From the NCBI GenBank assembly GCA_016290095.1, contig JAEESU010000020.1:1-53626 (forward strand): DNA of 53,626 bases. The letters run 5' to 3'. The notes beneath the pieces are model-generated. The model was given only the letters and a program-made list of their open reading frames with translations, was not told the origin of the DNA and did no database searches. A program made the translations under genes and the position numbers. Below are positions 1 through 53,626 of the stretch, in pieces; positions within the stretch are counted from its first letter, which is position 1, and each line of letters opens with the position of its first letter. Source of the DNA: Clostridia bacterium. Lineage in GTDB: Bacteria; Bacillota; Clostridia; TANB77; CAG-508.

Positions 1-1041
1 CAATCTAAACTAGGTAAATTTGATTCAAAAGAAATTGCAGAAGTAACATCAACAAACACAATAGATTTTACAGAAATAGGTAAGAAGAAAACAGCAGTAT
101 ATGTTATTTCTTCAGATACACATACAGCATATGATTTCTTACTTACAATATTCTTCTCACAAATGATTCAACAATTATACGATTTTGCAGATTTAAGTGG
201 TGGAGAATTGCCAGTTCCAACATATTTTATACTAGATGAGTTTGCAAATATTGGACAAATACCAGATTTTGATAAAAAGATTTCTACATCAAGAAGTAGA
301 AAAATATCATTTAGTGTTATTTTGCAGAACTTAGACCAATTGGAAGATGTTTATGAAAAAGCATACGAAACAATTATTGGTAACTGTGATACACACCTTT
401 TCTTAGGATCAAACTCTCAAAAGACAGTTGAGTATTTTTCTAAAGCATTAGGTGAAAAAACAATTACAAGAGATAATGTTTCAGTAAATAAAGATAAAGA
501 TGATTGGAAACAAGGAAAGAGTGAATCAGACCAAGTAATGGGAAGAACACTTATGACACCAGATGAACTTAGAAGAATGGATATGGATCTTTGTATTATT
601 TATGAAAAAGGTCTAAAACCAATTAAAGCTAATAAATATTATTATTTTAAATATCCAGAAGGAAAGATTATTACAAAATACAAAACTGATCATAATGATG
701 TTCATGTTGAAAGAGGAGTTTGGAGAAAATATAATCCATATAATCCATATGAAGAAGGTCAAGAAGAAAATGGAGGAGGTTCAAATCCATCATTAGAATC
801 ATTAGATGATTTGTTTGCTGACGAAGAACCATCAGCACCAAAATCTAATGCAGAGCCAGTCCCACAATTTGTTGAACCAAATGAACCTAAACAAGAACCA
901 AAAGTAAATTCAATTTCAATGGTTGATGAAGAGGAAGAAGCTAGAAAACAAGCGGAACTAGTAGATATTCAAAAAGAAATAGAAGCTAAATTTGATGAAT
1001 TATTTGGCTCAATGGATTCAGATGATGACGAAAATAATTAG
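1..1041 (+). CDS. VirD4/TraG-family type IV coupling ATPase, C-terminal part (5' truncated)
   Basis: The frame is open from base 1, so the gene starts before the window; 346 codons are visible. The family comprises inner-membrane coupling ATPases that pass DNA or protein substrates to a type IV secretion or conjugation channel. Visible residues ~78-84 read LDEFANIG, a Walker B strand of the VirD4/TraG type. It is followed by a conserved-looking stretch, STSRSRKISFSVILQNLDQL, typical of the TraG/TraD C-terminal ATPase lobe. The Walker A motif and the N-terminal membrane helices would lie upstream. The last ~120 residues are acidic and proline-rich, probably a disordered tail. A strong terminator follows directly. 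The substrate and the remaining secretion genes cannot be seen. Family assignment is solid; whether this is a mobile element or a resident system is open. Confidence 0.85.
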   Translation, partial: QSKLGKFDSKEIAEVTSTNTIDFTEIGKKKTAVYVISSDTHTAYDFLLTIFFSQMIQQLYDFADLSGGELPVPTYFILDEFANIGQIPDFDKKISTSRSRKISFSVILQNLDQLEDVYEKAYETIIGNCDTHLFLGSNSQKTVEYFSKALGEKTITRDNVSVNKDKDDWKQGKSESDQVMGRTLMTPDELRRMDMDLCIIYEKGLKPIKANKYYYFKYPEGKIITKYKTDHNDVHVERGVWRKYNPYNPYEEGQEENGGGSNPSLESLDDLFADEEPSAPKSNAEPVPQFVEPNEPKQEPKVNSISMVDEEEEARKQAELVDIQKEIEAKFDELFGSMDSDDDENN

Positions 1042-1169: not shown

Positions 1170-1242
1170 ATAATTAGTGTTTTATACCTAATTATTTAAA
1201 TTAACTTTTCGTGATTTCGAAGGTTATAGAATGGAGCTAGAC

Positions 1243-4200
1243 ATGGAAGATGAGAAAGAAGAATCATTAGTACCAGAAACAAAAAAAGACAATGGATCTG
1301 GAGTTGGAAATAAACTAGCAAATAAAGGAAAAGAAAAGGGTCAAGAAGCTGCAAAAAAAGCACTAAAAAAAGTTGCTAAAGAAGGTGCAAAAAAAGGTGC
1401 TTCAAAAGCAGCGATGGGACCAGTCCTTTTTTGGGTTATTGTTGTCATTGTAATAATTATTATACTAATAGGTATAATAATGTTTTTTGCAACAATGCCT
1501 GGAATGGTTTTAGAAAAGTTAAAAGCATTTTTTAAACAGCTGGGAAATTGGATTTCAGCTTTCTTTGGCGCGGACACATCAGAACAAATAGATGATACAC
1601 AAATATTTGAAACATTAAATTATTTGGAAGATTTAGGATATGATGTTAAAGGTTTTGGATTTTTAACAGATTACTATAAAAAAGGTGAAGAGAGTGAGAT
1701 TGAAGAACAGCTTACACAAAATCAAAAAGATGCAGGATATAATATAGACGAGAAGGCCGGAGTTGTAAGACAAAGTGGAAGTAACGAAATAATATTAGCG
1801 CATTCTGATTTTTTATTTACATATGCTGTATCTGAAAACTATGCTTATACTCTTAAAAATCACAATGTTGTTACACAGGAAAGTGGTAGAGGAGGATTAC
1901 TAGGATTTGTAGAAGGTGTATGGAATGGTATAAAATCTGCAGCAGCAAAAGTTGGGCATTTTTTAGGAATAGATATGCTTTGCAAAAATTTATTTAAAAT
2001 AATAGGAATAAATATGCAAACACCAGCTGAAGCTTGGGGTAAAGGATTTATTGCTATTTATTATGAGAATGGAGATTTAGTTAATGATGATGCTTTGCTA
2101 AATTTCGATTCAATAAGTATAGATATTCCAAAAAGGAAGTTAGCTATTAAAAGAGGAAGTTTATTTAATGGAAATAACCCAATGGAATTCTCTCTTGATG
2201 GATGGACTGGAAGATATAGTATGCCAGTAGATTTCTTACTTTCAGTTCATGTTGCAACAATGATGCCAGATTTAGCATATGACATGGCTACAAAGTTTAA
2301 TACAACAGCAAATTTATATTTACATGAAGCAGAGGGTGAAGTAATAGCTGCTTATTATACTAATAAAGGAACATATGTAACATTTGGAGAACTAAATAGC
2401 AAAATAAATCAAGGTGATGGTAGAAATTTGTTTAGTAGAGTTTTATCTTGGTTTGATAGTTTGGATACAAGTGACAAAGAGATGGAAATAGCATCAAAAA
2501 TGGGGATAAGACACTCTCCAGATTGCACTTGTACATATGATGTTGTTAAAGACAAGAGAATTAAAATAAAGAATGAAGCAGATGAAGAAGAAGAGCACAT
2601 AGTAACAGTAAGAGAAGGAAAATATTATTATATTGATATTGAATTGAATGAATGGTTGGCAATGCCTAATGATAAACAAATGGATGAAGACTTTTTACAA
2701 TCACATTTAAAAGAAGTTACAAATATAGCAGATATCTATGAGGTTGAACTTGGAGATAGAGAATATACTCATTTTTGTGATGCATGTAAAAAATATTTAA
2801 AGACATTGATAGACATGCTAAAAGCAACAAATGACTATGACTTTGCATATTATATTCCTTACCTAAAGAGCGTAATTAATCATTGGTATAGAGATGTATA
2901 TTTTATGACAAATGATGATAATAAACAATTTGTTACTACAGATACAGACTATGAAACAGTTTATAAAGAAAGATGGACATTATATGAATCATATGGCCCA
3001 AGTGACACAACTGATTACGCAAAAGAACATCAAGGAGACTTTAAACTATATCTTCTTATGAAAGATACAGGAGAATATGAATATACAGCAGCTCTTAGTG
3101 CATATTATTCTAGTGATGTTATCAATAAGTTGGTTAGAGAGAATGGAATATATAGATTTGATGGAACTCCAGAAGAAGCAGAAGAATTAGGAATAAATGT
3201 AGCTAAAAAAGCTGTAACAGTTCATGGAGATGATTTAACAAATTATGGTTGGCATAAATCTGGTGGCCAATGGTCAGCTTATAATTTTACAAGTAGTCAC
3301 TTTGAAGATGTCTACGTAAGAGTTTATTCAGATGAACAAGTTAAAGAGGAGACTGATGAAGCAAAAGCAAGTATAAAAGAATTTTTATATGATATAATGA
3401 ATAGTAATGCTGATGTTATACAAGTTGGAGAGGGTATGAGAACTCAAACAAATCCAACAATAAAAAAGATGTTCTTAAGTGATACATTTTTTAGATATGA
3501 TGGAACACCAAAAACAGCAGAGATTATTACAGATTTAAGAAATGAATTAGCTAAAGAGTTAAATGCTAATAGAGTTGAAAAATGGTACAATATAGAAGAA
3601 GCAGCAATACCTTTTGGAGCTATAAATGAATTATGTGATAATCATGGTAATAAAATGTCAGATGATTTAACTCAAAGAGAATATCAATTAACAATTGATG
3701 GAAAAACAAATACATATAAAGTATCAGATTATTCTGGACAAGTAGTACTAAATCAAGATTCATTAAATGCATTTACAATGCTAGAGAATGCTCATACACT
3801 TGACGCGGATTATATTTATAGAGATTTTAAGGAATTAGTAGTAGAACTTGGATATTTCACAAAAGAAGAATTAACAGATGAGGTCCCAGAAGTTCTAGCA
3901 TTTCCAGTAGTTGATATTGGTTCATATCAATACCCTGATAGAAAAATTGATAAAAGAGAAAATGAGTATGGAACAATGATACACTCTGAAGGTGATATAG
4001 CTTCAAATGTAGAGTTATTAAACGAAGAAACTGTAGAAAGAAGTGGAGCAACAAAAGGTGTTGATGAAGAATTAGAAGATATTTTATATAAAGGCTATAG
4101 TGGATACGAAGCAGTTGTATCACCTGTAACAGGAATTCTTCTAGAATATGGTACATATGATTCAACAATGAAAGACTCTTTAACAGATGAACAATACAGA

Positions 4201-5088
4201 GTAAATGTAGACTTAAAATATGGACCTATAGCTTTAACAGAAAGTCCAGATGGATTCCAAGAACAAATTGTATCAGATAAAGTAGGTTATGCCAAAATAT
4301 TAGTTTTAGATGTAGATAATTATTTGAGACTTGAAAGATTAAGACTAGTTGATGATGATGGAAATGTTTCTACCAACAATACTTGGATGGGAAATAGCCT
4401 TTATAATCCAGATACTAAGAAATTTAGAGAAGATATTATTGCTTCAGGAGGAAAAACAGCTGAAGAAAAAGCAGAGGAGCTAAATGATTTAGATGAATTT
4501 GTTTATGGATTTAAAGAGTTTACAGAATTATATGAGACAGTTGGTATAGCAGGATATACAGTAATTATTGATGGATTTGTTTGCGAAGAACCAGATCCAA
4601 GCTTAATAGGAAGTAATTATACAGGAAAGACACCTGTAAAAGGTACACCAATGTCAGTATCTAATTTTAAATCAAACTATAGATTTAGAAATGGTTATGT
4701 TTATACTGATCCAACATTAACTTCATTATACAAAGTAGATGATAATAATCAACTAGCTAGTGTTGAAGCAACAGATAAATTAAAAGCAGAAAATATAATA
4801 AAAAGAGATGCTATAGAACACATATATTTCGGAGAAAGTGATAAGTATTTAAGCGGAATCTTTATTAAAGAAGGTACAGTTTTAGGAAGAACAATGACAG
4901 ATGAAGAATTAAGAAGCAGTGGAGGTATAAGAGAAAGTTCATCTTCTATCAATTATGATGCGGGAATTACAGGAAATTATATCAGAATGATTATGAGAGA
5001 TTTAGATGGAACACCAGTAGAAGACATTGAAGATATGATTAAAAAAGATACAATAAAAAAACGTGTTGATAGAGAGAATGTAGAGTAA
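1243..5088 (+). CDS. large single-pass membrane protein of unknown function beside a type IV coupling ATPase
   Basis: 1281 residues. I chose ATG 1243 because GGAG (1233-1236) sits 6 bases before it; an in-frame ATG at 1231 is possible. The N-terminus is charged and Lys/Ala-rich (~residues 20-58). One strong hydrophobic helix follows at ~60-85 (FWVIVVIVIIIILIGIIMFF), then ~1190 mostly hydrophilic residues. Basic residues before the helix suggest a cytoplasmic N-terminus and a large extracytoplasmic part. Two Cys pairs are visible, one as DCTC and one as CDAC, ~100 residues apart. I recognise no catalytic motif, LysM or NlpC domain. It has its own promoter and a terminator on each side. Its position next to a VirD4-like gene suggests a structural role in a secretion or conjugation apparatus, but that is inference from context. 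Confidence 0.75.
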   Translation: MEDEKEESLVPETKKDNGSGVGNKLANKGKEKGQEAAKKALKKVAKEGAKKGASKAAMGPVLFWVIVVIVIIIILIGIIMFFATMPGMVLEKLKAFFKQLGNWISAFFGADTSEQIDDTQIFETLNYLEDLGYDVKGFGFLTDYYKKGEESEIEEQLTQNQKDAGYNIDEKAGVVRQSGSNEIILAHSDFLFTYAVSENYAYTLKNHNVVTQESGRGGLLGFVEGVWNGIKSAAAKVGHFLGIDMLCKNLFKIIGINMQTPAEAWGKGFIAIYYENGDLVNDDALLNFDSISIDIPKRKLAIKRGSLFNGNNPMEFSLDGWTGRYSMPVDFLLSVHVATMMPDLAYDMATKFNTTANLYLHEAEGEVIAAYYTNKGTYVTFGELNSKINQGDGRNLFSRVLSWFDSLDTSDKEMEIASKMGIRHSPDCTCTYDVVKDKRIKIKNEADEEEEHIVTVREGKYYYIDIELNEWLAMPNDKQMDEDFLQSHLKEVTNIADIYEVELGDREYTHFCDACKKYLKTLIDMLKATNDYDFAYYIPYLKSVINHWYRDVYFMTNDDNKQFVTTDTDYETVYKERWTLYESYGPSDTTDYAKEHQGDFKLYLLMKDTGEYEYTAALSAYYSSDVINKLVRENGIYRFDGTPEEAEELGINVAKKAVTVHGDDLTNYGWHKSGGQWSAYNFTSSHFEDVYVRVYSDEQVKEETDEAKASIKEFLYDIMNSNADVIQVGEGMRTQTNPTIKKMFLSDTFFRYDGTPKTAEIITDLRNELAKELNANRVEKWYNIEEAAIPFGAINELCDNHGNKMSDDLTQREYQLTIDGKTNTYKVSDYSGQVVLNQDSLNAFTMLENAHTLDADYIYRDFKELVVELGYFTKEELTDEVPEVLAFPVVDIGSYQYPDRKIDKRENEYGTMIHSEGDIASNVELLNEETVERSGATKGVDEELEDILYKGYSGYEAVVSPVTGILLEYGTYDSTMKDSLTDEQYRVNVDLKYGPIALTESPDGFQEQIVSDKVGYAKILVLDVDNYLRLERLRLVDDDGNVSTNNTWMGNSLYNPDTKKFREDIIASGGKTAEEKAEELNDLDEFVYGFKEFTELYETVGIAGYTVIIDGFVCEEPDPSLIGSNYTGKTPVKGTPMSVSNFKSNYRFRNGYVYTDPTLTSLYKVDDNNQLASVEATDKLKAENIIKRDAIEHIYFGESDKYLSGIFIKEGTVLGRTMTDEELRSSGGIRESSSSINYDAGITGNYIRMIMRDLDGTPVEDIEDMIKKDTIKKRVDRENVE

Positions 5089-24100: not shown

Positions 24101-24488
24101 CACAAATTATATCTACATTACTGTAACCAATATTCCTAGATTTTTTCTAAAAATTCCGGCCAATATTATACAAGTAGTAGTTGATAAAAGAAAAAGAGAT
24201 TAACAATGAAACAAGAGTATTTTTTACAAATCGCAAATCCTTGCGGAAGGTTAGTTTATAAGAATAAAAGTTACAAAATATTCTCAAAGCATTGAAATTG
24301 TAACTATTAATTAAAAAAAGTAACCAAAAAAATATAATTTTAAAAAACATGAAAACCCTAGAAAAATGCTAAAAACAAGCTGAAAATGTAAGAAAATTGT
24401 TATAGTTTTTTTCATATAAATATATTATTAATTAATTATATATTTAATTTAAATATTTATTTTAAGTTTGAATGGAGATTGTGCGAAA
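24101..24488. other. 388-bp leader/intergenic region ahead of the giant surface protein
   Basis: Very AT-rich. It contains a possible 29-residue reading frame (24206-24295, beginning MKQEYFLQIANPCGR), with only a weak SD, and a small CGCAA/TTGCG hairpin inside it. The last ~80 bases before the gene are nearly pure A/T. I find no convincing -35/-10 pair and no riboswitch I recognise. Confidence 0.5.
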
Positions 24489-27400
24489 ATGAAGAAAAAG
24501 AACTTTATTAGTAAAAAAGGAATTTTGATTTGTTTTATAATTGGAGTTTTGCTTGCAATAGGAGCTTGCAGAATTATACAATCAGAACACAAAGAAATTA
24601 ATATAATAGGTGCAGAGCAAAAACATCTTTTAGCTAATATAGCAAGTGGAACATCAGGAAGTTGTGATTGGGTAATTGATGAAGATGGAATACTAACGAT
24701 AAGCCCAACTAATGGGACAAGCGGAACATTAGCAAATTTTGAAACTAATAATGATGTACCATGGTATACATATAGAGAAAGTATTACTAAAGCACAATTT
24801 CAAGGAACAATATATGGAAACACATATTGTGTAAAAATGTTTGATTACTGTTCAAATATTACTGAAATTGATTTTACAAATTTTGATGTAAGTAATGTAA
24901 CAAATATGTTTGGTATGTTTGATAGTTGTAGCAATTTAATAAGCATAAATTTAGGAGATAACTTTGATACAAGTAATGTAACAAATATGGTTGGTATGTT
25001 TTATGAATGTAGCAGTTTAACAAGCTTAAACTTAGGAAATAATTTTGATACAAGTAATGTAACAAGTATGATCTCTATGTTTGCTGGATGTAGTAATTTA
25101 ACAAGTTTAGACTTAGGAGATAAGTTTGATACAAGTAATGTAACAAGTATGATCTCTATGTTTCAAGATTGTAGCAGTTTAACAAGTTTAGACTTAGGAG
25201 ATAACTTTGATACAAGCAATGTAACAAATATGACCGTTATGTTTATGGGTTGTAGTAGTTTAACAAGTCTAGATTTAGGTGATAAATTTGATACAAGTAA
25301 TGTAACTAGTATGACTGAAATGTTTTGTCAATGTAGCAGTTTAACAAGTTTAGACTTAGGAGATAACTTTGATACAAGTAATGTAAAAATCATGCCTGCT
25401 ATGTTTTTTGATTGTAGTAATTTAACAAGTTTAGACTTAGGAGATAATTTTGATACAAGTAATGTAAAAAGTATACCTGCTATGTTTGGTGGTTGTAGTA
25501 GCTTAACAAGTCTAGATTTAGGTGATAAATTTGATACAAGTAATGTAACAGAAATGAGTGCTATGTTTGAAAGATGTAGCAGTTTAACAAGCCTAGACTT
25601 AGGAGATAATTTTGATACAAGTAATGTAAAAACTATGCCTGGTATGTTTTATGAATGTAGCAGTTTAACAAGCTTAGATTTAAGTAGTTTTGATACAAGT
25701 AGTGTAACTAACATGAGTAATATGCTATTTAATACGGCATCATTAAGAAGCTTAACACTAAGTTCAGATTTTGAATTCAAATCAACAGATGTATTAGATG
25801 ATTATACAAATCCAAGTAAATGGCATAGAGTAGGAACAAATGAAAATTACACATCAGCAGAATTAATGAGCAATTATAATGGATCAACAATGGCAGGAGA
25901 ATATAGAAGAATAGAATATACAATAGAGTTTAATGGAAATGGCGCAACAAGTGGAAGCACAGCAAGTATGTCAATGTACGGAGGAGAAGCTAAAAACTTA
26001 ACATCAAACGGATTTACAAGAACAGGATATGGATTTAAAGGATGGAATAGTAAAGCAGATGGAACCGGTGTGTCATATGTAAATGAGCAAAGTGTAATAG
26101 ATTTAACAGAAGAAGATGGAGAAACAGTAACTCTATTTGCACAGTGGCAAAAAGCAGAATTAATGCAAAGAGAAACCGCACAATCAAACCAATATTATGT
26201 AATAGGAGCAGATCAAAATGCTAGCAATCCAAGAACAAATACAGGATATCTAGCAGAACAAATATCAACAATAACATTAGTAGATAATAAAACAACTATG
26301 CCAAACACGGGTGTAGTAGATAGTTGGGATGTATCAAAAGATAATGATGGTAGTGTAATAGCATGGATAACAGATGCAGGAATAGTAAATGAAGTACAAA
26401 TGTACAATTTATATATAGGAGGAAACGGAGCAGGAAGTATTGTCGCTCCTAATAGTGGATATAATAATGGACTATTCCAAAACTATAATAAATGTACAAT
26501 TATAAATGGACTAGAATTTTTAGACACAAGTAGTGTAACAAATATGAATAATATGTTTTATAATTGTAGCAATCTAACAAGTTTGGATTTAGGTGACAGA
26601 TTTGATACAAGTGGTGTTACCAATATGCAGAATATGTTTTTAAACTGTAGCAGTTTAGCAAGTTTAGATTTAGGAGATAAATTTGATACAAGTAATGTAA
26701 TAGATATGAATGCTATGTTTTATGGTTGCAGCAGTTTAGCAAGTTTAGATTTAGGAGATAACTTTAATACAAGTAATGTAACAAATATAAGCGCTATGTT
26801 TTATGGTTGTAGCAGTTTAACAAGTTTAGAATTAGACGATAACTTTGATACAAGTAATGTAACAAATATAAGTGCTATGTTTTATGGTTCTAGTAGCTTA
26901 ACAAGTTTAGATTTGGGAGATAACTTTGATACAAGTAATGTAACAAATATAAGCGCTATGTTTTATGGATGTGGCAGTTTAACAAACCTAGATTTGGGAG
27001 ATAAATTTGATACAAGCAATGTAAAAAATATGAACGCTATGTTTTTAAACTGTAGCAGTTTAGTAAGCCTAGATTTGGGAGATAAATTTGATACAAGTAA
27101 TGTAATAGATATGAGTGCTATGTTTTATGGCTGTAGCGGTTTAGCAAGTTTAGATTTAGGAGATAACTTTAATACAAGTAATGTAACAAATATAAGCGCT
27201 ATGTTTTATGGTTGTAGCAGTTTAGCAAGTTTAGATATAGGAGATAACTTTAATACAAGCAATGTAACATATATGGGTTCTATGTTTTATGAATGTAGCA
27301 GCTTAACAAGTTTAGATTTAAGTAGTTTTAATACAAGTAGTGTAACTAACATGAGTAATATGCTAACCGGTATGACATCACTAAGAAGCTTAACACTAAG

Positions 27401-30400
27401 TTCAGATTTCGAATTCAAATCAACAGATGTATTAAGTAATTATACAAATCCAAGTAAATGGCATAGAGTAGGAACAAATGAAAATTATACATCAGCAGAA
27501 TTAATGAGCAATTATAATGGATTAACAATGGCAGGAGAATATAGAAGAGTTGGATATACAGTAGAATTTTATCAAGGAAATAATAGTACATTAGCTGGAG
27601 CAACAAAATTAGGAGAACAAATATATTATTCAGGAGAGACTCAAAATTTAAATGCATATAATGGAACAGTACCAAGTGGATGGATATTTGCAGGATGGGG
27701 AACAACTCTAACAGCGACAAATGTAACATATACAAATCAACAGAGTGTGACTAACTTAACTGATATAGATGGTGATGTAATAGAATTATATGCAATATTC
27801 AAGAGACAAATAAATTTCTATGAAGGTATAGGTTCAAATTCAACTAGAACTCAATATTACAATCCATATCAAACAACAGGAAGTATAACATCAGTAACAG
27901 TACCAGTGTTGAATGATTTGAACAGATGGACAAAACTAGGATATAGAACAGATACAGAAGTAAGTACAGCAACAGTAGTAGTAACAACAGAAGAAGTGTC
28001 AATAACACCTCCATATGATCAAACAGAATTAGATTATTATGGAGTATATGCTAGAGACATATTACTGTATTCAGGAATAGCAGAAGCATCAAGTGTAACA
28101 AGAACACAATATTTAAATGTAGCAAATAATGGTACAGTATCATCAATAAATGCACCAACTCCAATAACAATTAGTGGTTGGACAGTAAGAGGATACAGTG
28201 AAGATACGTCAGCAACAAGTATTAGTTATGAAATAACAACTGATACAGATATAACACCAGCATATACATCAGACAATAACTTGTATGCAGTTTACAATAG
28301 AACAATATCTGTTGTATATTTAGGAAATGGAGCAACATCAGGAAGTGTACCAACATCAGAAACAACACAGTATTATAATACACATGGAGATATAACATCA
28401 AATGTATTAAACTTAGCTCCAAACGGATATACAAAAACAGGATATACAGCCAAGACACCAGTATGGAATACAAAAGCAGATGGAACAGGAGAACCACATG
28501 CAGCAGAAGAAAATTATACATTTGCACCAATAGTAGATGAAAATGCCACAATAACAATGTATGCACAATGGAGTGCAGAAGAAGATATACCATATGTAGT
28601 AAAACACTGGCAACAAAAATTAACAGGGGAAGCAGGACAGTATGATAGCACAAATTATGATATAAAAGATACACAGAATTTAACAGGAGAAGCAGATAGT
28701 CAAGTAACACCAGCATTTAATACATATGAAGGATTTACGCCAGCAGGAACAGAACAAACAATAACAATAGCAACAGATGGAAGTACGGTAGTAAATTATT
28801 ACTATAATAGAAATAGTTATGATGTAACATTAAATAAAGGAACAGGAATAGAAGAAGTTACAGGAGCAGGAAGTTATTTATATGGAGAAGAAGTAACAAT
28901 CAATGCAACAATGAAAGAAGGATACCGCTGGGTAAATTGGACTGGAACGAATAATATAACTACAAAAAACTATACATTTACAATGCCAGCTGAAAATATA
29001 AATGATACAGCAAATGGAGAAATAGATGAGAACCAAACAAAGATGCTAAAATATACTGTAGAGTATTATAAAGATGGTATTTTACAAGATACACAAACGG
29101 AAAGCAAAGAAGTACAGGTACTTGAAGATGATACAATAGATGTTGACCACACAAAAATAAATATAACAGATAAATATGAAGGTTATACATTTGAAAGGAC
29201 AGAACCAGAAATTATTCTAGATGTGGTTGATAATGGAACGATAATAAAAGTATATTATATATCAATAAGAAAAATAATAGTAAAATATGTTGACAAAAAT
29301 GATCCAGAGAATGTATTACTTGTAGAAGAAAGAAAAGGAAAACATGGTACAACAGTTGAAACAGAAGCAAAAGACTTTGATGGATATGTATTGGTAGAAA
29401 AGCCAGATATAGAAGAACATACATTTAATGAAGAAGAGCAAGTGGTATACTACTATTACGCAAAACAATCAAGCGGAGTCATAGCAAAATACATAAATAT
29501 ACTTAATAATAATCTAGTAGCAGATAGTGAAGCATATGAAGGCTTAGAAGGAACAGAATATGAAACAGAATCAAAAGAAATAGAAGGATTCAACATAGTA
29601 ACAAATAAAGAATATTATGATATGATAGTAAGAAGAGATGAGAACTTCTTAAGTGATAACGAAGTGGAAACTGTAGAAGAGTATTTAGAGAAGAAAGGTA
29701 TTGACGGAGAAGAAGAGTATATACCAAAAAATGCAAAAGGAGAAATGGCAGAAGAATTAATAGAAGTAAAATACTATTATATGCCAAAAGTAAAATTAAT
29801 AGTAAAATATAAAGATATATATTCAGAAGAAGACTTAAAAGAAAACATAGATGGAGAACTTGTAGACTCAACATTAGAATATGAGGGAATAGTAAACGAA
29901 GAATATGAAACAGAAGCAAAAGATTTTGAGAAGTATTACAAGGTAACAAATAAGATTTTCTACAAAGCATATTTAAGAAATCATCCGGAAGTATTAGAAG
30001 AATCAGAAGCGGAAACACTAGAGAAATACTTAGAAATAAACAATATAGATCCAGAAGCAGAATATGTACCAGAAAATGCAAAAGAGAAATACGAAATAGT
30101 AATGAATGAAGATGGCACATATACAAATGAAATAATAATAACATACTACTATGTAGCAGAAAGAGAAGTAAAAGTTAAATACTATGATAAGACAACAGGA
30201 GAAGAGATAGCAGAAGAAGAAATAAAAATAGGACCAGATGGAGAACTATATGATTTAGCAGATGAAAAGAGGCAAATAGAAGGGTACACATTAGTAGAAG
30301 AACCAGAAGAATCGAAAGGCGTCTATAAAGAAGATAATGAAACGAAAAATTACTATTATGCAAAGAATACACAAATAATAGTAAAATATGTGGACAAAGG

Positions 30401-30929
30401 AACAGAAGAAGAGATAATAGAAGATGTAATAATAGATGGATATGAAGGAAAAGAATATATTACAGAAAAGAAGGCATTTGAAGGTTACGAATTTGAAGAA
30501 GTAGATGGAGATGCAGATGGAACGATGACAGATGAACCAATAACAATAAAATATTATTACATTAAGAAAAAGGCGGAAGAGCAAAAAGATGAGCCTAAAG
30601 ACGAATCAAAAGAAGAGAATAAAGATTCTAAAAAAGAAGAAAACAGTAATAGTGGAAAAACAACAATTATAAATAATTACTACTATACAGATAGTAAGAA
30701 AGATAATACTCAAAATAATCAATCTACTTCAAATGTAGCAAAAAATACAGTAAATAATACAAACATAAAAAATACGGCAAAAGAACAATCTAAAGAAACG
30801 TCTACACCAAAAACAGGAGATATTTTGCCAATAATAGCTTTCGGAGCAATTGGTATAGTGGTATTAGCAAATATTATACAAATGGCATTAACTAAAAAGA
30901 AAAAAGATAAAAAGTCAAAAATAGAATAA
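24489..30929 (+). CDS. giant sortase-anchored surface protein with DUF285 repeats, InlB-type and MucBP-like repeats
   Basis: 2146 residues. I place the start at ATG 24489, behind GGAG at 11 bases; an in-frame TTG at 24468 lies before the GGAG. A hydrophobic signal segment lies at ~9-26. Residues ~132-427 and ~678-970 are arrays of 27-residue BspA/DUF285 leucine-rich units, each like FDTSNVTNMxxMFxxCSSLTSLDLGDN. Between and after them are InlB B-type repeats (FNGNGATSG...GFTRTGYGFKGWNSKADGTG; ~476-555 and several at ~1020-1370). Then come MucBP-like modules with VKYVDK and YYY motifs (~1420-2030). A Lys/Glu/Asn-rich stalk ends in TPKTGD (~2106), a hydrophobic helix and a basic tail: a cell-wall sorting signal. 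Such proteins mediate adhesion. No sortase gene is in view. Confidence 0.92.
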   Translation: MKKKNFISKKGILICFIIGVLLAIGACRIIQSEHKEINIIGAEQKHLLANIASGTSGSCDWVIDEDGILTISPTNGTSGTLANFETNNDVPWYTYRESITKAQFQGTIYGNTYCVKMFDYCSNITEIDFTNFDVSNVTNMFGMFDSCSNLISINLGDNFDTSNVTNMVGMFYECSSLTSLNLGNNFDTSNVTSMISMFAGCSNLTSLDLGDKFDTSNVTSMISMFQDCSSLTSLDLGDNFDTSNVTNMTVMFMGCSSLTSLDLGDKFDTSNVTSMTEMFCQCSSLTSLDLGDNFDTSNVKIMPAMFFDCSNLTSLDLGDNFDTSNVKSIPAMFGGCSSLTSLDLGDKFDTSNVTEMSAMFERCSSLTSLDLGDNFDTSNVKTMPGMFYECSSLTSLDLSSFDTSSVTNMSNMLFNTASLRSLTLSSDFEFKSTDVLDDYTNPSKWHRVGTNENYTSAELMSNYNGSTMAGEYRRIEYTIEFNGNGATSGSTASMSMYGGEAKNLTSNGFTRTGYGFKGWNSKADGTGVSYVNEQSVIDLTEEDGETVTLFAQWQKAELMQRETAQSNQYYVIGADQNASNPRTNTGYLAEQISTITLVDNKTTMPNTGVVDSWDVSKDNDGSVIAWITDAGIVNEVQMYNLYIGGNGAGSIVAPNSGYNNGLFQNYNKCTIINGLEFLDTSSVTNMNNMFYNCSNLTSLDLGDRFDTSGVTNMQNMFLNCSSLASLDLGDKFDTSNVIDMNAMFYGCSSLASLDLGDNFNTSNVTNISAMFYGCSSLTSLELDDNFDTSNVTNISAMFYGSSSLTSLDLGDNFDTSNVTNISAMFYGCGSLTNLDLGDKFDTSNVKNMNAMFLNCSSLVSLDLGDKFDTSNVIDMSAMFYGCSGLASLDLGDNFNTSNVTNISAMFYGCSSLASLDIGDNFNTSNVTYMGSMFYECSSLTSLDLSSFNTSSVTNMSNMLTGMTSLRSLTLSSDFEFKSTDVLSNYTNPSKWHRVGTNENYTSAELMSNYNGLTMAGEYRRVGYTVEFYQGNNSTLAGATKLGEQIYYSGETQNLNAYNGTVPSGWIFAGWGTTLTATNVTYTNQQSVTNLTDIDGDVIELYAIFKRQINFYEGIGSNSTRTQYYNPYQTTGSITSVTVPVLNDLNRWTKLGYRTDTEVSTATVVVTTEEVSITPPYDQTELDYYGVYARDILLYSGIAEASSVTRTQYLNVANNGTVSSINAPTPITISGWTVRGYSEDTSATSISYEITTDTDITPAYTSDNNLYAVYNRTISVVYLGNGATSGSVPTSETTQYYNTHGDITSNVLNLAPNGYTKTGYTAKTPVWNTKADGTGEPHAAEENYTFAPIVDENATITMYAQWSAEEDIPYVVKHWQQKLTGEAGQYDSTNYDIKDTQNLTGEADSQVTPAFNTYEGFTPAGTEQTITIATDGSTVVNYYYNRNSYDVTLNKGTGIEEVTGAGSYLYGEEVTINATMKEGYRWVNWTGTNNITTKNYTFTMPAENINDTANGEIDENQTKMLKYTVEYYKDGILQDTQTESKEVQVLEDDTIDVDHTKINITDKYEGYTFERTEPEIILDVVDNGTIIKVYYISIRKIIVKYVDKNDPENVLLVEERKGKHGTTVETEAKDFDGYVLVEKPDIEEHTFNEEEQVVYYYYAKQSSGVIAKYINILNNNLVADSEAYEGLEGTEYETESKEIEGFNIVTNKEYYDMIVRRDENFLSDNEVETVEEYLEKKGIDGEEEYIPKNAKGEMAEELIEVKYYYMPKVKLIVKYKDIYSEEDLKENIDGELVDSTLEYEGIVNEEYETEAKDFEKYYKVTNKIFYKAYLRNHPEVLEESEAETLEKYLEINNIDPEAEYVPENAKEKYEIVMNEDGTYTNEIIITYYYVAEREVKVKYYDKTTGEEIAEEEIKIGPDGELYDLADEKRQIEGYTLVEEPEESKGVYKEDNETKNYYYAKNTQIIVKYVDKGTEEEIIEDVIIDGYEGKEYITEKKAFEGYEFEEVDGDADGTMTDEPITIKYYYIKKKAEEQKDEPKDESKEENKDSKKEENSNSGKTTIINNYYYTDSKKDNTQNNQSTSNVAKNTVNNTNIKNTAKEQSKETSTPKTGDILPIIAFGAIGIVVLANIIQMALTKKKKDKKSKIE
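24882..25770 (+). repeat. First array of 81-bp DUF285 units (11 units)
   Basis: Tandem 81-bp units in frame, each coding one 27-residue repeat starting TTTGATACAAGTAATGTA. Unit 10 is one codon shorter, and unit 11 leads into a cap region that is repeated almost unchanged after the second array. Confidence 0.88.
26520..27404 (+). repeat. Second array of 81-bp DUF285 units (11 units)
   Basis: Same unit length and same number as the first array; again unit 10 is one codon short and unit 11 leads into a near-identical cap (SDFEFKSTDVL and the following YTNPSKWHRVGTNENYTS). Confidence 0.88.
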
Positions 30930-45927: not shown

Positions 45928-47199
45928 ATGGAAGAACAAACAAAACAGGGAGATAGAGCTCAAAAAATAGAGGGGTATTCTCAAGATATAAAAGATGCAA
46001 AAGCTACTTTAAGTAAGTATAAAACAATGCTAAAAGAAGTAACATCTGCTACAAAAACATTGATTGTTGCATCTGCAAAAAGAGGTCTTACTTCACAAAT
46101 TGATAAAATTCAAAGAGCATATGAAGAAAAAAAGCAAGCTTTAACTGATAGAATAGCAGAAGGAAAAGAAGCAGTAAAAAGATCAGAAACAGCTCAAAAG
46201 AGTAGTATAAAAAGAACTAAAACAAATATGGAAAGATATGACTCTAATTTAGTTCAAAACAGTGAAGAACATGGTGGATTTAGAGCACATGTTGCCAGAA
46301 GAATAAGAGGTATTGATAAGAGACAAACTGCAAGATATACTGTTTCTGCAACAATTGGTGGAAAAACACTTACTACTTTAGCTAAAGCAGCAGCAAGTGT
46401 TGGAATGAAGAAAACAGCAACAAGAATTGGTGTTGCAGGTGCAAATTACGTTAATAATAAAATGGATACAGCTTCTAAAAAAGCAACAGCAAGAAGAACG
46501 GATTTTAGAGCAAGAACAACCGCATATGATAGAGCAAGTAAAGGAGCAGATAAAGTTCAAGCAGCTACAGATAAAGCATATTCAGCAGAAGATAAAAAAA
46601 GTAAAGAATGGAGAGAACAAGAAGGACCTGGAAAAATTACAAGAAGAACTATATCAGGAATTGCTAAAGGTGTTTCTGCAATGGCTAAATTTACTTCAAA
46701 AACAAGAACAGGATTATATGAAATGGCAGCACATACAGCAGCAGCTCTTGGAAATGCTGGTAGATCAAAAAAATTAATGGAAAGAGCAGAAGAAAAAGCT
46801 AAACGCACAATGGGAAGAGCTCAAGCATTTAATGAAGGAATGAGAACTGGTGCTGATGCTGGAATAGAAGCAGGCGAAAAGGTTAGTGAAGGTGTAAAGG
46901 CTTTCGGAAGAGGAGCTAAAGCTATAGGAAAAAGTACAATCGATTTTACGGTTGGAGCTGTAGTCATTGCTGGACAACAAGTTACAGACAAGGCTATGAC
47001 AACAAGAGATAATGTTTCATTAAGATATCAAAAATCAAAACAAGGATTATTAGGCCTTATTAGAAGAGGTGCACAAAGTATTGTTGGTAGAATGGATGAA
47101 TCATTAGAAGTAAGTAGAGCAGCAGCATCTAAAACTCAAGAAAGAATTGATGAAAGAAAAGGAAGTAAGAAACAAGAAGAAGCTGGACAAGAGAAATAG
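45928..47199 (+). CDS. basic Ala/Lys/Arg-rich protein of unknown function, fourth gene of the unassigned cluster
   Basis: 423 residues, ATG 8 bases behind AGGAG. It begins with a coiled-coil stretch (~10-110). The middle and C-terminal parts (~130-400) are Ala/Gly/Lys/Arg-rich and strongly basic, with repeated short helices such as TTLAKAAASVGMKKTATR and GKAIGKSTIDFTVGAVVIAG. The last of these is the only weakly hydrophobic segment (~335-355). The composition resembles nucleic-acid-associated or phage/secretion structural proteins, but no family is recognised. Only 3 bases separate it from the metalloprotease-like gene, so the two are probably coupled. Confidence 0.72.
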   Translation: MEEQTKQGDRAQKIEGYSQDIKDAKATLSKYKTMLKEVTSATKTLIVASAKRGLTSQIDKIQRAYEEKKQALTDRIAEGKEAVKRSETAQKSSIKRTKTNMERYDSNLVQNSEEHGGFRAHVARRIRGIDKRQTARYTVSATIGGKTLTTLAKAAASVGMKKTATRIGVAGANYVNNKMDTASKKATARRTDFRARTTAYDRASKGADKVQAATDKAYSAEDKKSKEWREQEGPGKITRRTISGIAKGVSAMAKFTSKTRTGLYEMAAHTAAALGNAGRSKKLMERAEEKAKRTMGRAQAFNEGMRTGADAGIEAGEKVSEGVKAFGRGAKAIGKSTIDFTVGAVVIAGQQVTDKAMTTRDNVSLRYQKSKQGLLGLIRRGAQSIVGRMDESLEVSRAAASKTQERIDERKGSKKQEEAGQEK

Positions 47200-47202
47200 T
47201 TT

Positions 47203-48324
47203 ATGAGTGAAATAAATATATATCAACTAAGAGAAATATATATAAAACGAAGAATAGGAACAGTTGTCAAAGCATACGATAAAGATGATGAAATGAAATA
47301 TTATTTTTACGTTTGTAAAAAGCTTTCAGAAAAATATCCAGAAATAGTCAAAGGTAAAGAAACTCTTGATAAGATATCAGGAGAAGGTAGAATATTAACA
47401 GCAGGTTTAGATAATAAAAATAATGGAATGTTTGATGAAGAATATAATAATGTTTTAATAAATCATTTTTTAGATAGGATGACAACTTTTCTTTTTCATG
47501 AGGTTGTTCACAAGATTGGTTTTATGAATAGTAATGGTCAAAAACAATTACCAAGGCCAATGAGAGAAGCAGGGACCGAAAAAATAACAGCAGAAACTAT
47601 GATGAACAGAAATACAAAAGGATATATTTTTTCTAATATTTGGGCAAGATTTCCAAATACAATTTCAACATACTTTTTAGACTATACAATGATTAGCCAA
47701 CTAAGTTTTTTTACACCTCATAATTCGCTAGAATCAAGTATATTAAACGGCGATTGTAGTTTTTTGGAACAATTAAAAGACACTTTTGGTGATGAAGACT
47801 CAAAAGTTATTATAAATAGCTTTAATGAAATGAGTAAGCAGTATGATTATTATTCAAAATTTTATAAAGTATTAAGTCAAAGAGAAAAGAATACAAAATT
47901 ATCAGAGATAGAAAAAAATATTGCAAGAATACAAAGTATTACACTTAAAGCATTTGATAAAATGGCAGAAGGAGTATCAACAACAAGACAAGCAAACGTT
48001 CTATTAAGCAAAATGCTTGAATATTCAGAATATAGAGTAAGAAGAAAAGAAGATGATGGGTTTCATGATGATGAATTTGAAAATTATTTTAATATGATAA
48101 AAGCAAGATTACAAGAAAGGTTTAAAAGTGCTAAATTTAAACAAAGTTTTAATTCGAATTCTTGGAATGGATTAGAAGATTTTCATGAAGTAGAACAAAT
48201 TTTACCTGATGAGAGAACTGAAATAGATGGATTAAAAAGAAAAATTTTAATTGATACTAAGAGAACAAAATTATTAAGCTTATTAAAAATAGAGATGTTT
48301 AAAAAAGGTGACAGGGAAAAATAA
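47203..48324 (+). CDS. predicted HExxH zinc metalloprotease-like protein, fifth gene of the unassigned cluster
   Basis: 373 residues. FLFHEVVHKIGF at ~97-107 contains H99-E100-x-x-H103, the zinc and catalytic residues of gluzincin/metzincin-type peptidases. Downstream REAGTEKITAE (~121-131) resembles the E-G-x-T-E segment that supplies the third zinc ligand (E122 or E126) in gluzincin-like families. No signal peptide or transmembrane helix, so a cytoplasmic enzyme unless exported by a dedicated system. The C-terminal ~200 residues are helical and charged. Family unknown to me; the assignment as a peptidase rests on these motifs. It starts 3 bases after the basic protein gene and is followed by a terminator. 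Confidence 0.7.
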   Translation: MSEINIYQLREIYIKRRIGTVVKAYDKDDEMKYYFYVCKKLSEKYPEIVKGKETLDKISGEGRILTAGLDNKNNGMFDEEYNNVLINHFLDRMTTFLFHEVVHKIGFMNSNGQKQLPRPMREAGTEKITAETMMNRNTKGYIFSNIWARFPNTISTYFLDYTMISQLSFFTPHNSLESSILNGDCSFLEQLKDTFGDEDSKVIINSFNEMSKQYDYYSKFYKVLSQREKNTKLSEIEKNIARIQSITLKAFDKMAEGVSTTRQANVLLSKMLEYSEYRVRRKEDDGFHDDEFENYFNMIKARLQERFKSAKFKQSFNSNSWNGLEDFHEVEQILPDERTEIDGLKRKILIDTKRTKLLSLLKIEMFKKGDREK

Positions 48325-49899: not shown

Positions 49900-49928
49900 T
49901 TGACTTAGAAATAATTTATTAATATAGT
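49900..49928 (+). promoter_or_regulatory. Promoter of the interrupted nucleotidyltransferase-like gene
   Basis: TTGACT (49900-49905), 17-base spacer, TATAGT (49923-49928). The start codon is 37 bases downstream. Confidence 0.72.
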
Positions 49929-49964
49929 AAAATTAGATATATTATATTGATAAGAGGAATTATA

Positions 49965-51218
49965 ATGGCTGATACAAAAGAGAGAAGAATAATTTCACCT
50001 GAAGAGTTTTCTGAAAGAAAAAATGGAATAGAAAAAGTTAAAAAATTGATAATACCTTATATAATTATTTGCTTAAAAGAAAAAGGAAATAGTTTAGAGG
50101 ATATAGCAAGTTTATTTGAAGTTTCTGCAGATGAAATACTTCAAGATAGAGAATTAAATGAAATTATTAATGTTCAAAGTGGGACTAGAGAAGATTTAGA
50201 TAAGTTAATACCTGAAGAAATAAGACCTGTATTTACGGAAATTATAGAATTACCTATTGATGGTCAACCATTATTTGAAAATGAAAAGTTCAAAGAAATA
50301 ACACAAAAAATTAGTGATTATTTAAAAAATCAGAGTATGGAATTTATAGAAGAATTATCAGAAAGTGATTTAAGCCAAATTCCTCCTGAAATGTATCGTA
50401 GATTACCACAGTTAGAATATTTAAGATTTGAAGGGACAGGTGCAAGATTAGATTTTTCACAATTTGATTATTCAGATACAGTAACAGGGTCTTTAAAAGG
50501 TTGTGAGCTTATATCATTTAATCCTACTCATTACAATAGAGAAAGAAGTGTGGATAATGACGCATTTAAATCAAGTACTATAGATGCTGATTGCCTTGAT
50601 GAAAGCCAATATCAAGTTGTTCTTGATGGCTATAGATATGGCAGTTATATTCCAGTTGAAATATTTTTTCTTTTTGAACTACCTGAAATACAAGAGAATA
50701 ATGATTGGTTTTTTGAAGAAATGTTAACTGATGAAGAAGTTTCTGAATACAAAATAAAAGAAATATGGAAAGTATTAACACCAGAAAATCAGGCAAAACG
50801 AAAATACTTATTAGAAAGAATTATTGATAGATCAAGTAGATTTGATGACATTTCTTTATTAAATATGCTATCTAATACGGATGGTAGTTTAATAGATGAA
50901 TATGAATTTCAAATTAGAAATATATACAAAACTGAAGACGGAAGAGTTAGTTTAAAAGACTTTTTAAAAAAAGCATTTAAATACTATCCACCAGTGGTGC
51001 AAGTTAGTAAATTTGATACGATTATCCAAGAACTTGAGAATAGCAAGGATTTAAGTGGAGAGCCTATTTCACATGATGAAGCAATCGAAACAGTATGGGA
51101 AAATTTGAGAAAAGAAAGCCAAGAACAGTTATTGCAAAGATTATATGGTTTATGCATAAACGAAGATAAAACAATAAATACATCTCTATTAGTTGGAATT
51201 ATAGTACGGAAAAGATAG
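49965..51218 (+). CDS. N-terminal part (417 residues) of an interrupted giant protein
   Basis: ATG 49965 follows AGAGGA by 6 bases. This part ends at a TAG at 51216-51218, but the frame continues one base shifted for another ~2.4 kb, so this is probably the first third of one gene. It has a helix-turn-helix-like stretch near the start (KGNSLEDIASLFEVSADEIL, ~47-66). A leucine-rich-like segment around 139-165 (LSQIPPEMYRRLPQLEYLRF) resembles a short LRR start. The rest is helical and acidic, with no membrane helix. I recognise no family in this part alone. It has its own promoter and lies behind the asnS terminator. Confidence 0.7.
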   Translation: MADTKERRIISPEEFSERKNGIEKVKKLIIPYIIICLKEKGNSLEDIASLFEVSADEILQDRELNEIINVQSGTREDLDKLIPEEIRPVFTEIIELPIDGQPLFENEKFKEITQKISDYLKNQSMEFIEELSESDLSQIPPEMYRRLPQLEYLRFEGTGARLDFSQFDYSDTVTGSLKGCELISFNPTHYNRERSVDNDAFKSSTIDADCLDESQYQVVLDGYRYGSYIPVEIFFLFELPEIQENNDWFFEEMLTDEEVSEYKIKEIWKVLTPENQAKRKYLLERIIDRSSRFDDISLLNMLSNTDGSLIDEYEFQIRNIYKTEDGRVSLKDFLKKAFKYYPPVVQVSKFDTIIQELENSKDLSGEPISHDEAIETVWENLRKESQEQLLQRLYGLCINEDKTINTSLLVGIIVRKR

Positions 51219-53626
51219 AGATTTAGAGTTACCCCAAAATATTTTAGATACTGTTTTTGAACTATATAACAGTGGCGATATACAAAGAGGCGATACTAGA
51301 GTATGGGCTAATATTGGAAAAGAAAATCAAAAAAATAATATAGTTAGTTTTATAAAAATGCAAATAAAAAATGGCGTTGATATAAATAGTATTTATGAGT
51401 TTTGGAATAGAACTGACTTAAGAGTAAGAGAAGAAGTAATAGATGATGTTGTATCTGAGATTATTGAGGAAAATCCAGAACTAGCGAACATCATAAAAAA
51501 TAAGGGATATATACAAATATTACACGATCTTCCAAAAGAAGAAAGGGAAGAGAAAATAAAAGGTGATACATCTAGATTTATAGAAGCTTTATGGGGAAAG
51601 TATAATTTAGATGGAAAAGAAATACCTAAAGACTTAAAAGATAAGTATAATGTAGAATTTGCTAATATTCTTTATATGCTTGAGACTAAAGGAACATTAG
51701 ACCAAACAAACTTTGACATAATTATCGAAAACATACCTAGACTAGGATATGAAGTTATAGATAGAACATATAACAGTAATTCAGAAATGATAAGAAATTA
51801 TGCAAATCAATTAATAGTAAGTGTAGCTGGATTACCAGTGGAAGAGGCGCATGAAACTTTAAGAGAAATAGAAGACGTTTTTTCTAATGATAATGTACCA
51901 AACTTTATTAAAATATATAAATATTTTGAGATATTAGTTGGTAAAAAAATAATTGAATCAATTTCGAGATCGGATTCACCAAAAATATCTCCAGCATTAA
52001 ACAATTCAAAAAATGAGAATTTAACAAAAAGAATAATTTTTTCTGATTTACTTAAAATCTCTATGGATTCTAATAATAAATCATTACTAAGATTTATTGA
52101 TATATTACAAAGAGGAAATGAAGTTTATAATAAGATAGCAAGAAACAATTTTGATGAAAGTAGTTTAACTGTTGATGAAAGAAAGACTTTACAAGATTTT
52201 GTAAAAACTATTTACTTTATGTACGAAGAGTCAGATGCTAGCAAAACAGATAAGAAATTAGGACAAAAAATTTTTTTAACAGGAAATTTAGAAAAAGATG
52301 CTATGGTCATGGGAACAAGATATTCTCATGATGGACATATAGATGATTTAGCAGACAGAGTATTTCAAGGCTATATAGGTGGATACCGTGAATTATTTGG
52401 TGGCATAGATACAATATCTAAAATCAGAGATTATATGATTCAGAAGGTAAATGATAGTAATTCAAGACATAAGCAATTAGCTGAAGAATTAAGAAGAACA
52501 GGTAGACTTGACTTAGCAAATGGTGACTTGGTAAAAGGTATTGGATTATCAAAAGGTTTTGGAGTATTTACATCTATTATAGAAGATGGAATAAGAGCAG
52601 GAGAGTTTTTAGGAACTAGCAATCATTCTGATGCAACACCATTAGATACAGATTTTGGCATTATAAGAAATATTACTCCTGAAATGACAATTTCTCAGAT
52701 TATTTCTAGTACTCCAGCAAATGGATATGGTCCATTATATGCTATAGTTAAATATGATCCGCAAAAAATAGAACTATCAAGAAGAAATGGAGCAATTGAA
52801 AGAGAAGTAGATAAGGATTCTTTAGCAGAAAGACTAAAAAACAGAAGAGAAAAATCTGAAATTAAAAGAAGAATTAGCAGAAGGACAACAGGAAATTATA
52901 CAGGAAAAAGATTGGAAATGTTTAATAGTGATGTATTAGGAGAACAGCACTATGGAATAAGAACTGGGCTTGGAATTGCAGATGTTGATTATTTTGTTAT
53001 TGATAGATATGACAAGAGAATTGGTTATGAATTAGCAATGAGTGGTATATATATTCCAATTGTTTCTAGGAGTACAGGTGAACTATTATTTACACCAGAA
53101 CAATTTGATGAAATAAGATCTCAAATGCAAGGACTTGAACATTTTCAAACAGGCAAATTTCAAGTAGACAGAAGTGCATTTACAAGTCAAGCAGGAGAAA
53201 TAGTACAAGAACTATTTCCTGATGGAAATGTAGAAGAATCTGTTAGTGAAATGGATGCTAGAAAAAAGAGATTAGCTATACAGTCAGAAGTAGAAAGAGT
53301 TTTATTTGAGGAATTAGGATTAAGACTAGAGAATCAAATAACAGGTAATTTAACAAATGGATTTGTTGAGTTTATTGACACTGGCTCTACAGGAAGAGGC
53401 ACTAATTTACCTGGAAGTGGTGATTTCGATTTCACAATGAAAGTTGACAGGAACATAATTGATAGCCCAGAGAAAATGGAAAAATTAAGAGAAGAACTAA
53501 GAAAAGCTCTAGCAGTTAGAAGTAGTGATCCTAAGTGTGCTTTGACTGAATATGGTGGAAACTTTAGATATAAAAAAGTACAGGTTAATGGATTAGATCA
53601 GCCTTTAGACATAGATCTTTCGTTCA
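51205..53626 (+). CDS. C-terminal part of the same giant protein, with a polymerase-beta/cGAS-like nucleotidyltransferase motif set (3' truncated)
   Basis: The frame is open from 51205 to the end of the window, about 807 codons, without a stop. Its first ATG is at 51358 and has no good SD, so an independent start is unlikely. Deleting one A of the run at 51210-51213 joins it to the preceding frame as RKDRDLELPQ. At 53383-53434 it reads GSTGRGTNLPGSGDFDF: a GS loop followed by a D-x-D pair. At 53605-53622 comes LDIDLSF, in the place of the third catalytic carboxylate. This is the catalytic pattern of Pol-beta superfamily nucleotidyltransferases such as OAS, cGAS and CD-NTases. Upstream (52550-52670) is a conserved-looking stretch with KGIGLSKGFGVFTSIIEDGI that I cannot assign. 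Confidence 0.75.

What the first reader, a model, noticed from the sequence alone, without database searches (positions are those of the whole stretch)
49965..53626. Very large protein with a cGAS/OAS-like nucleotidyltransferase motif set at its far end
Seen: a gene of more than 1200 codons whose last visible part has GSTGRGTNLPGSGDFDF and, ~60 residues later, LDIDLSF. Known: in the Pol-beta nucleotidyltransferase superfamily (CD-NTases, cGAS, OAS, CCA-adding enzymes), a GS loop, a D-x-D pair and a third Asp on a following strand coordinate two metal ions. Inference: ~1100 residues of unfamiliar sequence, with a possible HTH and a central domain, precede an enzyme that could make a nucleotide second messenger or modify RNA or protein. 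I know no described family with this layout, so it is the best candidate for an undescribed system here.
Basis: partly seen in the sequence, partly recalled or inferred. Interest (0 to 1): 0.9.

Follow-up and report, generated by a model that had tools for sequence, protein, structure and literature searches.

The report
Giant nucleotidyltransferase with tailed partner gene
At the end of this gut-bacterium contig lies a very large, here broken, gene that ends in a nucleotide-transferring enzyme domain of an undescribed family; relatives sit beside a small protein that also partners many unrelated genes, which hints at an unstudied two-gene arsenal.

Summary
The motifs are real, but in the window the gene is not one frame: it is split into 49965-51218 and 51205-53626 and then cut by the contig end. 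The last 103 bases equal the start of contig C2, where the frame runs on 201 residues to a stop.

I found 18 copies in 17 genomes, all in one bacterial family (13 of 243 family genomes sampled). All 18 carry an undescribed ~210-residue domain ('TPLDTD') followed by a Pol-beta-type nucleotidyltransferase (NTase) with conserved catalytic residues. N-termini differ. The NTase resembles both CD-NTases and archaeal CCA-adding enzymes but reaches neither family's cut-off. At least 8 of 17 evaluable copies look broken, at different places.

A small protein with a basic amphipathic tail follows in 14 of 17 loci. It belongs to a multi-copy family: of 104 copies examined, 76 lie within 60 nt behind a same-strand gene, and these partners form about 45 sequence clusters. 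So it is not an NTase-specific cyclic-nucleotide effector.

Best reading: a conflict-type NTase effector placed or held by its small partner at the membrane. Substrate, direction of action and the TPLDTD domain's role are unknown. Both structure predictions failed (mean pLDDT 41 and 49).

The parts
49965..51218 (+). 5' part of the giant gene (N-terminal region), ending in a stop in this assembly
   Evidence: homologous to residues 4-356 of L016's protein, 28% identity
51205..51218 (+). place where the first frame ends and the second frame is already open (break of the gene in this copy)
51205..53626 (+). 3' part of the giant gene, open to the contig end; continues in G000:C2:1-708
51880..52500 (+). 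conserved helical-looking stretch before the TPLDTD domain (e.g. FSNDNVPNFIKIYKYF, IFSDLLKISMDSNNKSL)
   Evidence: alignment of the long copies; coordinates; boundaries approximate
52507..53184 (+). undescribed ~210-residue 'TPLDTD' domain
   Evidence: profile match, alignment A6 of 17 rows; no Pfam match above cut-off, no PDB match
53122..53626 (+). start of the nucleotidyltransferase domain (its end lies on C2)
   Evidence: profile match 53122-53625 and C2:4-540; alignment A5
53383..53433 (+). GSTGRGTNLPGSGDFDF catalytic motif
53605..53625 (+). LDIDLSF, third catalytic Asp
53524..53626 (+). 103 bases identical to the first 103 bases of contig C2 (assembly overlap)

Best explanation
It is one (here broken) copy of a large conflict-type nucleotidyltransferase effector made by one family of small-genome Clostridia. 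Shown from sequence: a variable, partly repetitive N-terminus, a conserved stretch, an undescribed TPLDTD domain always joined to a Pol-beta-type NTase whose catalytic residues are kept, and usually a small downstream partner with a basic amphipathic C-terminal helix. Inferred: the N-terminus picks a target; the NTase transfers a nucleotide to a macromolecule, most likely an RNA end such as a tRNA acceptor (because the NTase and the domain behind it align over their whole joint length with archaeal CCA-adding enzymes), thereby disabling it; the small partner binds the enzyme and places it at, or holds it inactive on, the membrane, as its relatives do for other enzymes.
For: Catalytic residues conserved; purifying selection in pairs of at least 60% identity, dN/dS 0.17-0.46 in 15 NTase pairs and 0.22-0.62 in 10 TPLDTD pairs. 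Profile matches: PADLOC cyclase PDLC00776 in 14 of 19 members, best 2e-5; Pfam NTP_transf_2 in 9 of 19, best 5e-4; NCBIfam archaeal CCA enzyme in 6 of 19, best 3.7e-4, covering profile positions between 12 and 209 of 410 in the five seen in detail. hhalign to CD-NTases: score 38 against 18 reversed and at most 24 in 30 column shuffles. NTase and TPLDTD profiles hit the same 13 of 243 genomes. Partner: 14 of 17 loci, a remnant in one more; 76 of 104 small genes lie within 60 nt behind a same-strand gene, about 45 partner clusters. Patchy distribution, one genus spread over the tree and frequent breakage are usual for conflict genes (general knowledge).
Against: No experiment; no reliable fold. 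All CCA matches are far below that family's cut-off (at most 19.4 against 281.3 bits). The hhalign probability is only 39%. No target, no trafficking domain and no defence-island setting was found. Two of 17 loci have no small partner (L047, L049). Some copies have altered catalytic letters (L042, L045, L046, both L044 copies). The acidic C-terminal tail seen in other partners is absent from the NTase partners.
Confidence: 0.42

Rival explanations
1. CBASS-like signalling: the NTase makes a cyclic or linear oligonucleotide when the N-terminus senses phage, and the small tailed protein is the membrane effector.
For: CD-NTase profiles are the commonest named match (14 of 19); hhalign above controls; the partner has a membrane-type tail.
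Against: SMODS in 1 of 19 at E 0.096, whereas bacterial CD-NTases typically match SMODS (PMC10732462, passages). The same small family sits behind about 45 clusters of other genes, so it is not a dedicated nucleotide receptor. No gene recognisable to me as a CBASS effector in the ORF lists (read by eye, no family search of all neighbours).
Confidence: 0.15
2. Exported effector: the giant protein and the other partners are cargo of a type IV secretion system and the small proteins are adaptors or immunity proteins; the target lies in neighbouring bacteria or host cells.
For: The window begins with the 3' part of a VirD4-type coupling protein (Cag5 8dol E 2e-13, TrwB E 0.003) followed by a 1285-residue protein with a membrane segment. 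A second ATPase with Walker motifs lies near a small gene in 8 loci. Non-NTase partners have acidic, hydrophilic C-termini (45 partners against 81 controls, p 4e-7 for acidity). Variable partner plus small downstream gene recalls effector-immunity and effector-chaperone pairs.
Against: NTase partners do not share the acidic tail (p 0.29). The second ATPase had no PDB match and lies on the other strand about 2.5-3 kb away. No secretion signal was tested.
Confidence: 0.25
3. A housekeeping RNA enzyme (tRNA end repair).
For: Best partial similarity over NTase plus following domain is to archaeal CCA-adding enzymes.
Against: Present in 13 of 243 family genomes and 2 of 391 class genomes; often broken; profile match stops at position 209 of 410.
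Confidence: 0.06
4. The window copy is a decaying pseudogene and the family no longer has a common function.
For: Frame change in the window copy; at least 8 of 17 evaluable copies look broken.
Against: Nine copies not seen to be broken with open frames of 806-1665 codons; dN/dS well below 1. For the window copy alone pseudogene or assembly error is likely.
Confidence: 0.12

Closest known systems
Archaeal (class I) CCA-adding enzyme, NCBIfam TIGR03671 / Pfam PF09249
   Same: GS, DxD, third Asp, and a following domain with a G-rich GSF stretch; partial profile match over positions 12-209
   Different: Far below cut-off (at most 19.4 of 281.3 bits); no match to the C-terminal half; fused behind a large variable protein; patchy
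CD-NTases (SMODS PF18144; PADLOC oligonucleotide cyclases)
   Same: NTase core; PDLC00776 in 14 of 19 members; hhalign above controls
   Different: SMODS not reached; different second domain; partner gene not a dedicated effector
MenAT / AbiE nucleotidyltransferase toxin-antitoxin systems
   Same: NTase with a small neighbour gene; would also disable tRNA if the inference holds (MenT papers PMC10435456, PMC11541572: search listing and abstract starts only)
   Different: Large multidomain protein; AbiEii profile in 1 of 19 at 0.02; neighbour gene downstream and shared with unrelated partners
Polymorphic toxin systems (PMC3482391, passages)
   Same: Diverse enzymes, each with a small downstream gene of a shared family, patchy and fast-changing
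   Different: No recognised trafficking domain found; BLAST found no shared domain between NTase and other partner clusters

Membership tests
Pol-beta-like nucleotidyltransferase superfamily | GS motif, DxD and third carboxylate in order | tested here: met
   GST 17 of 17, first Asp 16 of 17, second 17 of 17, third 19 of 19 rows
Pol-beta-like nucleotidyltransferase superfamily | profile match at curated cut-off (PF01909) | tested here: inconclusive
   9 of 19 members at E up to 0.1, best 5.2e-4 (bits of that best member not seen); L016's own match is 13.8 bits against a cut-off of 21
Pol-beta-like nucleotidyltransferase superfamily | fold | tested here: inconclusive
   AlphaFold2 models with mean pLDDT 40.8 and 48.7 from two-row alignments; no fold search was run on them
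CD-NTase / CBASS | SMODS (PF18144) match | tested here: not met
   1 of 19 members at E 0.096
CD-NTase / CBASS | cyclic nucleotide product | not testable with these tools
   needs biochemistry
Class I CCA-adding enzyme | TIGR03671 at cut-off over full length | tested here: not met
   best 19.4 bits against 281.3, positions 12-209 of 410 at most
MenAT / AbiE toxin-antitoxin | AbiEii-type NTase match | tested here: not met
   AbiEii in 1 of 19 at E 0.02
Polymorphic toxins | known trafficking or processing domain upstream of a swappable toxin domain | tested here: not met
   no Pfam match above cut-off with a plausible domain in the long proteins (the P0005 hits are to its repeats); no domain sharing by BLAST among partner clusters
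Type IV secretion cargo | charged/acidic C-terminal signal | tested here: not met
   14 NTase partners do not differ from 81 controls (p 0.29); 45 other partners do (p 4e-7)

The most novel reading that the evidence does not exclude
The giant NTase is one weapon in an undescribed, order-wide modular system of small-genome gut Clostridia: dozens of unrelated enzymes (NTases, amidoligases, HExxH proteins, others) are each encoded directly in front of a copy of one small protein whose basic amphipathic tail docks the pair at the membrane, possibly at a type IV secretion coupling protein, for storage, neutralisation or export.
Probability: 0.3. Interest if true: 0.85.

Novelty: new variant of a known kind. 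Interest (0 to 1): 0.6.

Why it matters
If right, it adds a family of multidomain nucleotidyltransferases that stands between CCA-adding enzymes and CD-NTases, with a fused domain of unknown role. More broadly, the small tailed partner gives a handle on an order of abundant but little-studied gut bacteria: following that one gene family lists their variable effector-like genes, most of which matched no Pfam family in the sample tested (8 of 10).

Tried and rejected
AlphaFold2 on L016 plus the window (530 residues, mean pLDDT 40.8) and on the NTase alone (299 residues, 48.7): too poor to use, so no fold search was run. ADP-ribosyltransferase reading of the TPLDTD domain (my recall of motif spacing): hhalign to two ART-looking partner sets gave probabilities of 0.07 and 1.1%, Pfam and PDB nothing; dropped. 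A first hhalign run used a global setting and is discarded.

Acidic C-terminal tail as a common docking signal: holds for non-NTase partners, fails for NTase partners. A first, looser control (76 partners against 199 ORFs) mixed both and included doubtful ORFs; one search replaces it.

Phage or plasmid origin: no relative in viral contigs with three queries (43, 30 and 13 candidate stretches, none confirmed), none significant in phage records (full protein; best E 2) or plasmids (NTase only; best E 7). E. coli genomes were not searched. Programmed frameshift: the breaks lie at different places in different copies, so not favoured; assembly error was not excluded.

Full report
What is in the window. 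The region holds two overlapping open frames, 49923-51218 (ATG at 49965) and 51205-53625, not one. The second frame runs into the contig end. The window is the whole of contig C25 (53,626 bases) of a 1.51-Mb, 30-contig genome; its last 103 bases are identical to the first 103 of contig C2, and C2 carries the frame on for 201 residues to a stop at 708, followed at 727 by a small gene. tblastn with two intact relatives places both window frames in one gene, with a frame change between them. The break could be real or an assembly error.

The family. One relative came from the GTDB genome collection (L016, rabbit-gut MAG named 'uncultured Clostridia bacterium'); 16 more genomes came from unnamed GTDB genomes, one of which, G628, appears to hold the same contig as L016. 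In all I count 18 copies in 17 genomes including the window's (G447 has two in tandem). Samples: 5 of 56 relatives (E up to 0.001, window genome included), 2 of 391 genomes of the class, both in the window's family, and 13 of 243 of the family, in 7 of 39 genera. The samples overlap. Outside the family none matched.

Layout. NTase and TPLDTD profiles both match in all 18 copies (in some broken copies over two frames), and in the 243-genome sample the two profiles hit the same 13 genomes. The N-terminal parts hardly align; L013 has 13 copies of a GN(I/V)EKYL repeat and L015 eight of another. Nine copies not seen to be broken have stop-to-stop frames of 806-1665 codons; for L043 and L045 a missing N-terminal part is possible. 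Broken: six by a frame change in tblastn (window, L014, L015, L040, L044 second copy, L050) and two by comparison of frames (L046, L048); L049 is cut by its contig end. So 8 of 17 evaluable.

The NTase. GST in 17 of 17 rows, DFD first Asp 16 of 17, second 17 of 17, third Asp 19 of 19. Further near-invariant stretches follow: GG(F/L)G-G-ENW-LQN-GS(F/Y) in all 18 rows that reach it, and a DFG-NH-type motif in those rows with some changes. Named matches are weak but repeated: PADLOC cyclases PDLC00776 in 14 of 19 and PDLC00803 in 5 of 19 members, best 1.3e-5; NTP_transf_2 in 9 of 19, best 5.2e-4; tRNA_NucTransf2, DZF_N and SMODS in 1 of 19 each at 0.03-0.1; archaeal CCA enzyme in 6 of 19, best 3.7e-4, over profile positions between 12 and 209 (5 of 10 members given). 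A profile comparison with four CD-NTases taken from genomes of the class gave 39% probability and score 38, against 18 for the reversed alignment and at most 24 in 30 column shuffles. No PDB sequence match (the one hit at E 0.19 is a designed protein). The superfamily is therefore well supported by motif and profile, not by fold.

Selection and spread. dN/dS (NG86) is 0.17-0.46 in 15 NTase pairs and 0.22-0.62 in 10 TPLDTD pairs of at least 60% identity; some dS values exceed 1. On the NTase tree the six copies of the window's genus need six label changes (at least five forced by well-supported branches), which points to transfer between genera; all labels together are nevertheless more clustered than shuffled ones (8 changes against a mean of 10.3).

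The small partner. A 118-152-residue gene follows in 14 of 17 loci, L013 keeps only a 3' remnant, L047 and L049 have none. It is a multi-copy family: 12 of 12 genomes tested have 2-15 matches, 101 in all; 15 of 381 class genomes, 14 of them in the window's order. I fetched loci for 93 of the 101 and, with the other NTase loci, examined 104 small ORFs, fragments included. The nearest upstream gene is on the same strand in 96 and within 60 nt in 76. These 76 partners fall into 45 BLAST clusters at E 1e-4, the NTase giants being the largest (15 ORFs); fragments inflate the number. Eight of 76 carry HExxH. Of ten partners scanned, one is an amidoligase above cut-off (PF12224, 2e-13), one has a sub-threshold nucleotidyltransferase match, eight have none. 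The last 26 residues of 90 small proteins of at least 140 residues have a mean best helical moment of 0.54 against 0.35 shuffled, and net charge +2 or more in 85 of 90. The family has no meaningful Pfam (three members; best E 0.002, below cut-off) or PDB match.

What follows. A partner shared by so many unrelated genes cannot be a dedicated receptor of the NTase's product. It fits an adaptor, tether, chaperone or general neutraliser. The NTase's joint match with CCA-adding enzymes makes an RNA end the likeliest acceptor; this is inference. Nucleotidyltransferase toxins that extend tRNA acceptor stems are known (MenT; PMC10435456 and PMC11541572, seen as listing and abstract starts).

Export. 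The window opens with the 3' part of a VirD4-type coupling protein and a 1285-residue protein with a membrane segment. A different ATPase with Walker-type motifs lies near a small gene in 8 loci but had no PDB match. Non-NTase partners have acidic hydrophilic C-termini, NTase partners do not. So export is possible and unproven.

Novelty. Literature searches with six term sets listed no paper that, from title and abstract start, describes this protein or the small family; only open-licence papers are held and no bioRxiv. I file it as a new variant of a known kind: an NTase in a new setting. The shared-partner system may be newer than that.

Noticed in passing
window 163-1041 and 1231-5088: 3' part of a VirD4-type coupling protein (Cag5 E 2e-13) followed by a 1285-residue protein with a membrane segment near its N-terminus: a type IV secretion or conjugation locus cut by the contig start.
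   Followed up: partly
window 45928-48324: A basic, Ala/Lys-rich 423-residue protein directly in front of a 373-residue protein with an HEVVH (HExxH-type) motif: looks like another effector-type pair, without the small tailed partner.
   Followed up: partly
L037 4361-6756 (G000:C24): In the window's own genome a small tailed gene follows an HExxH, SprT-like (E 3e-4, below cut-off) gene that lies in two frames.
   Followed up: partly
L038, L093, L109, L129, L140, L145, L156, L171: Homologous ATPase with Walker-type motifs near a small tailed gene in eight genomes, on the other strand.
   Followed up: partly
window 24468-30929: 2153-residue surface protein with many 'DTSNVTNM-MF--CSSL-SLDLG' repeats and a C-terminal TPKTGD-type anchor (recalled BspA-like).
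   Followed up: no
L012 1-2677: The intact NTase gene of G028 lies a few kb from what look like mobilisation and integrase genes (names recalled, not searched).
   Followed up: no
L045 2647-2919 and 3887-4159: The same 91-codon open frame is listed twice, 1.2 kb apart: a recent duplication or an assembly artefact.
   Followed up: no
L047 5919-6599, L103 1351-2184, L149 4363-5172, L160 1078-1977, L142 10241-11527: Recurrent partner or neighbour with an (F)HFT...SI...GL.P pattern that recalls ADP-ribosyltransferases; no Pfam match for the three scanned.
   Followed up: partly
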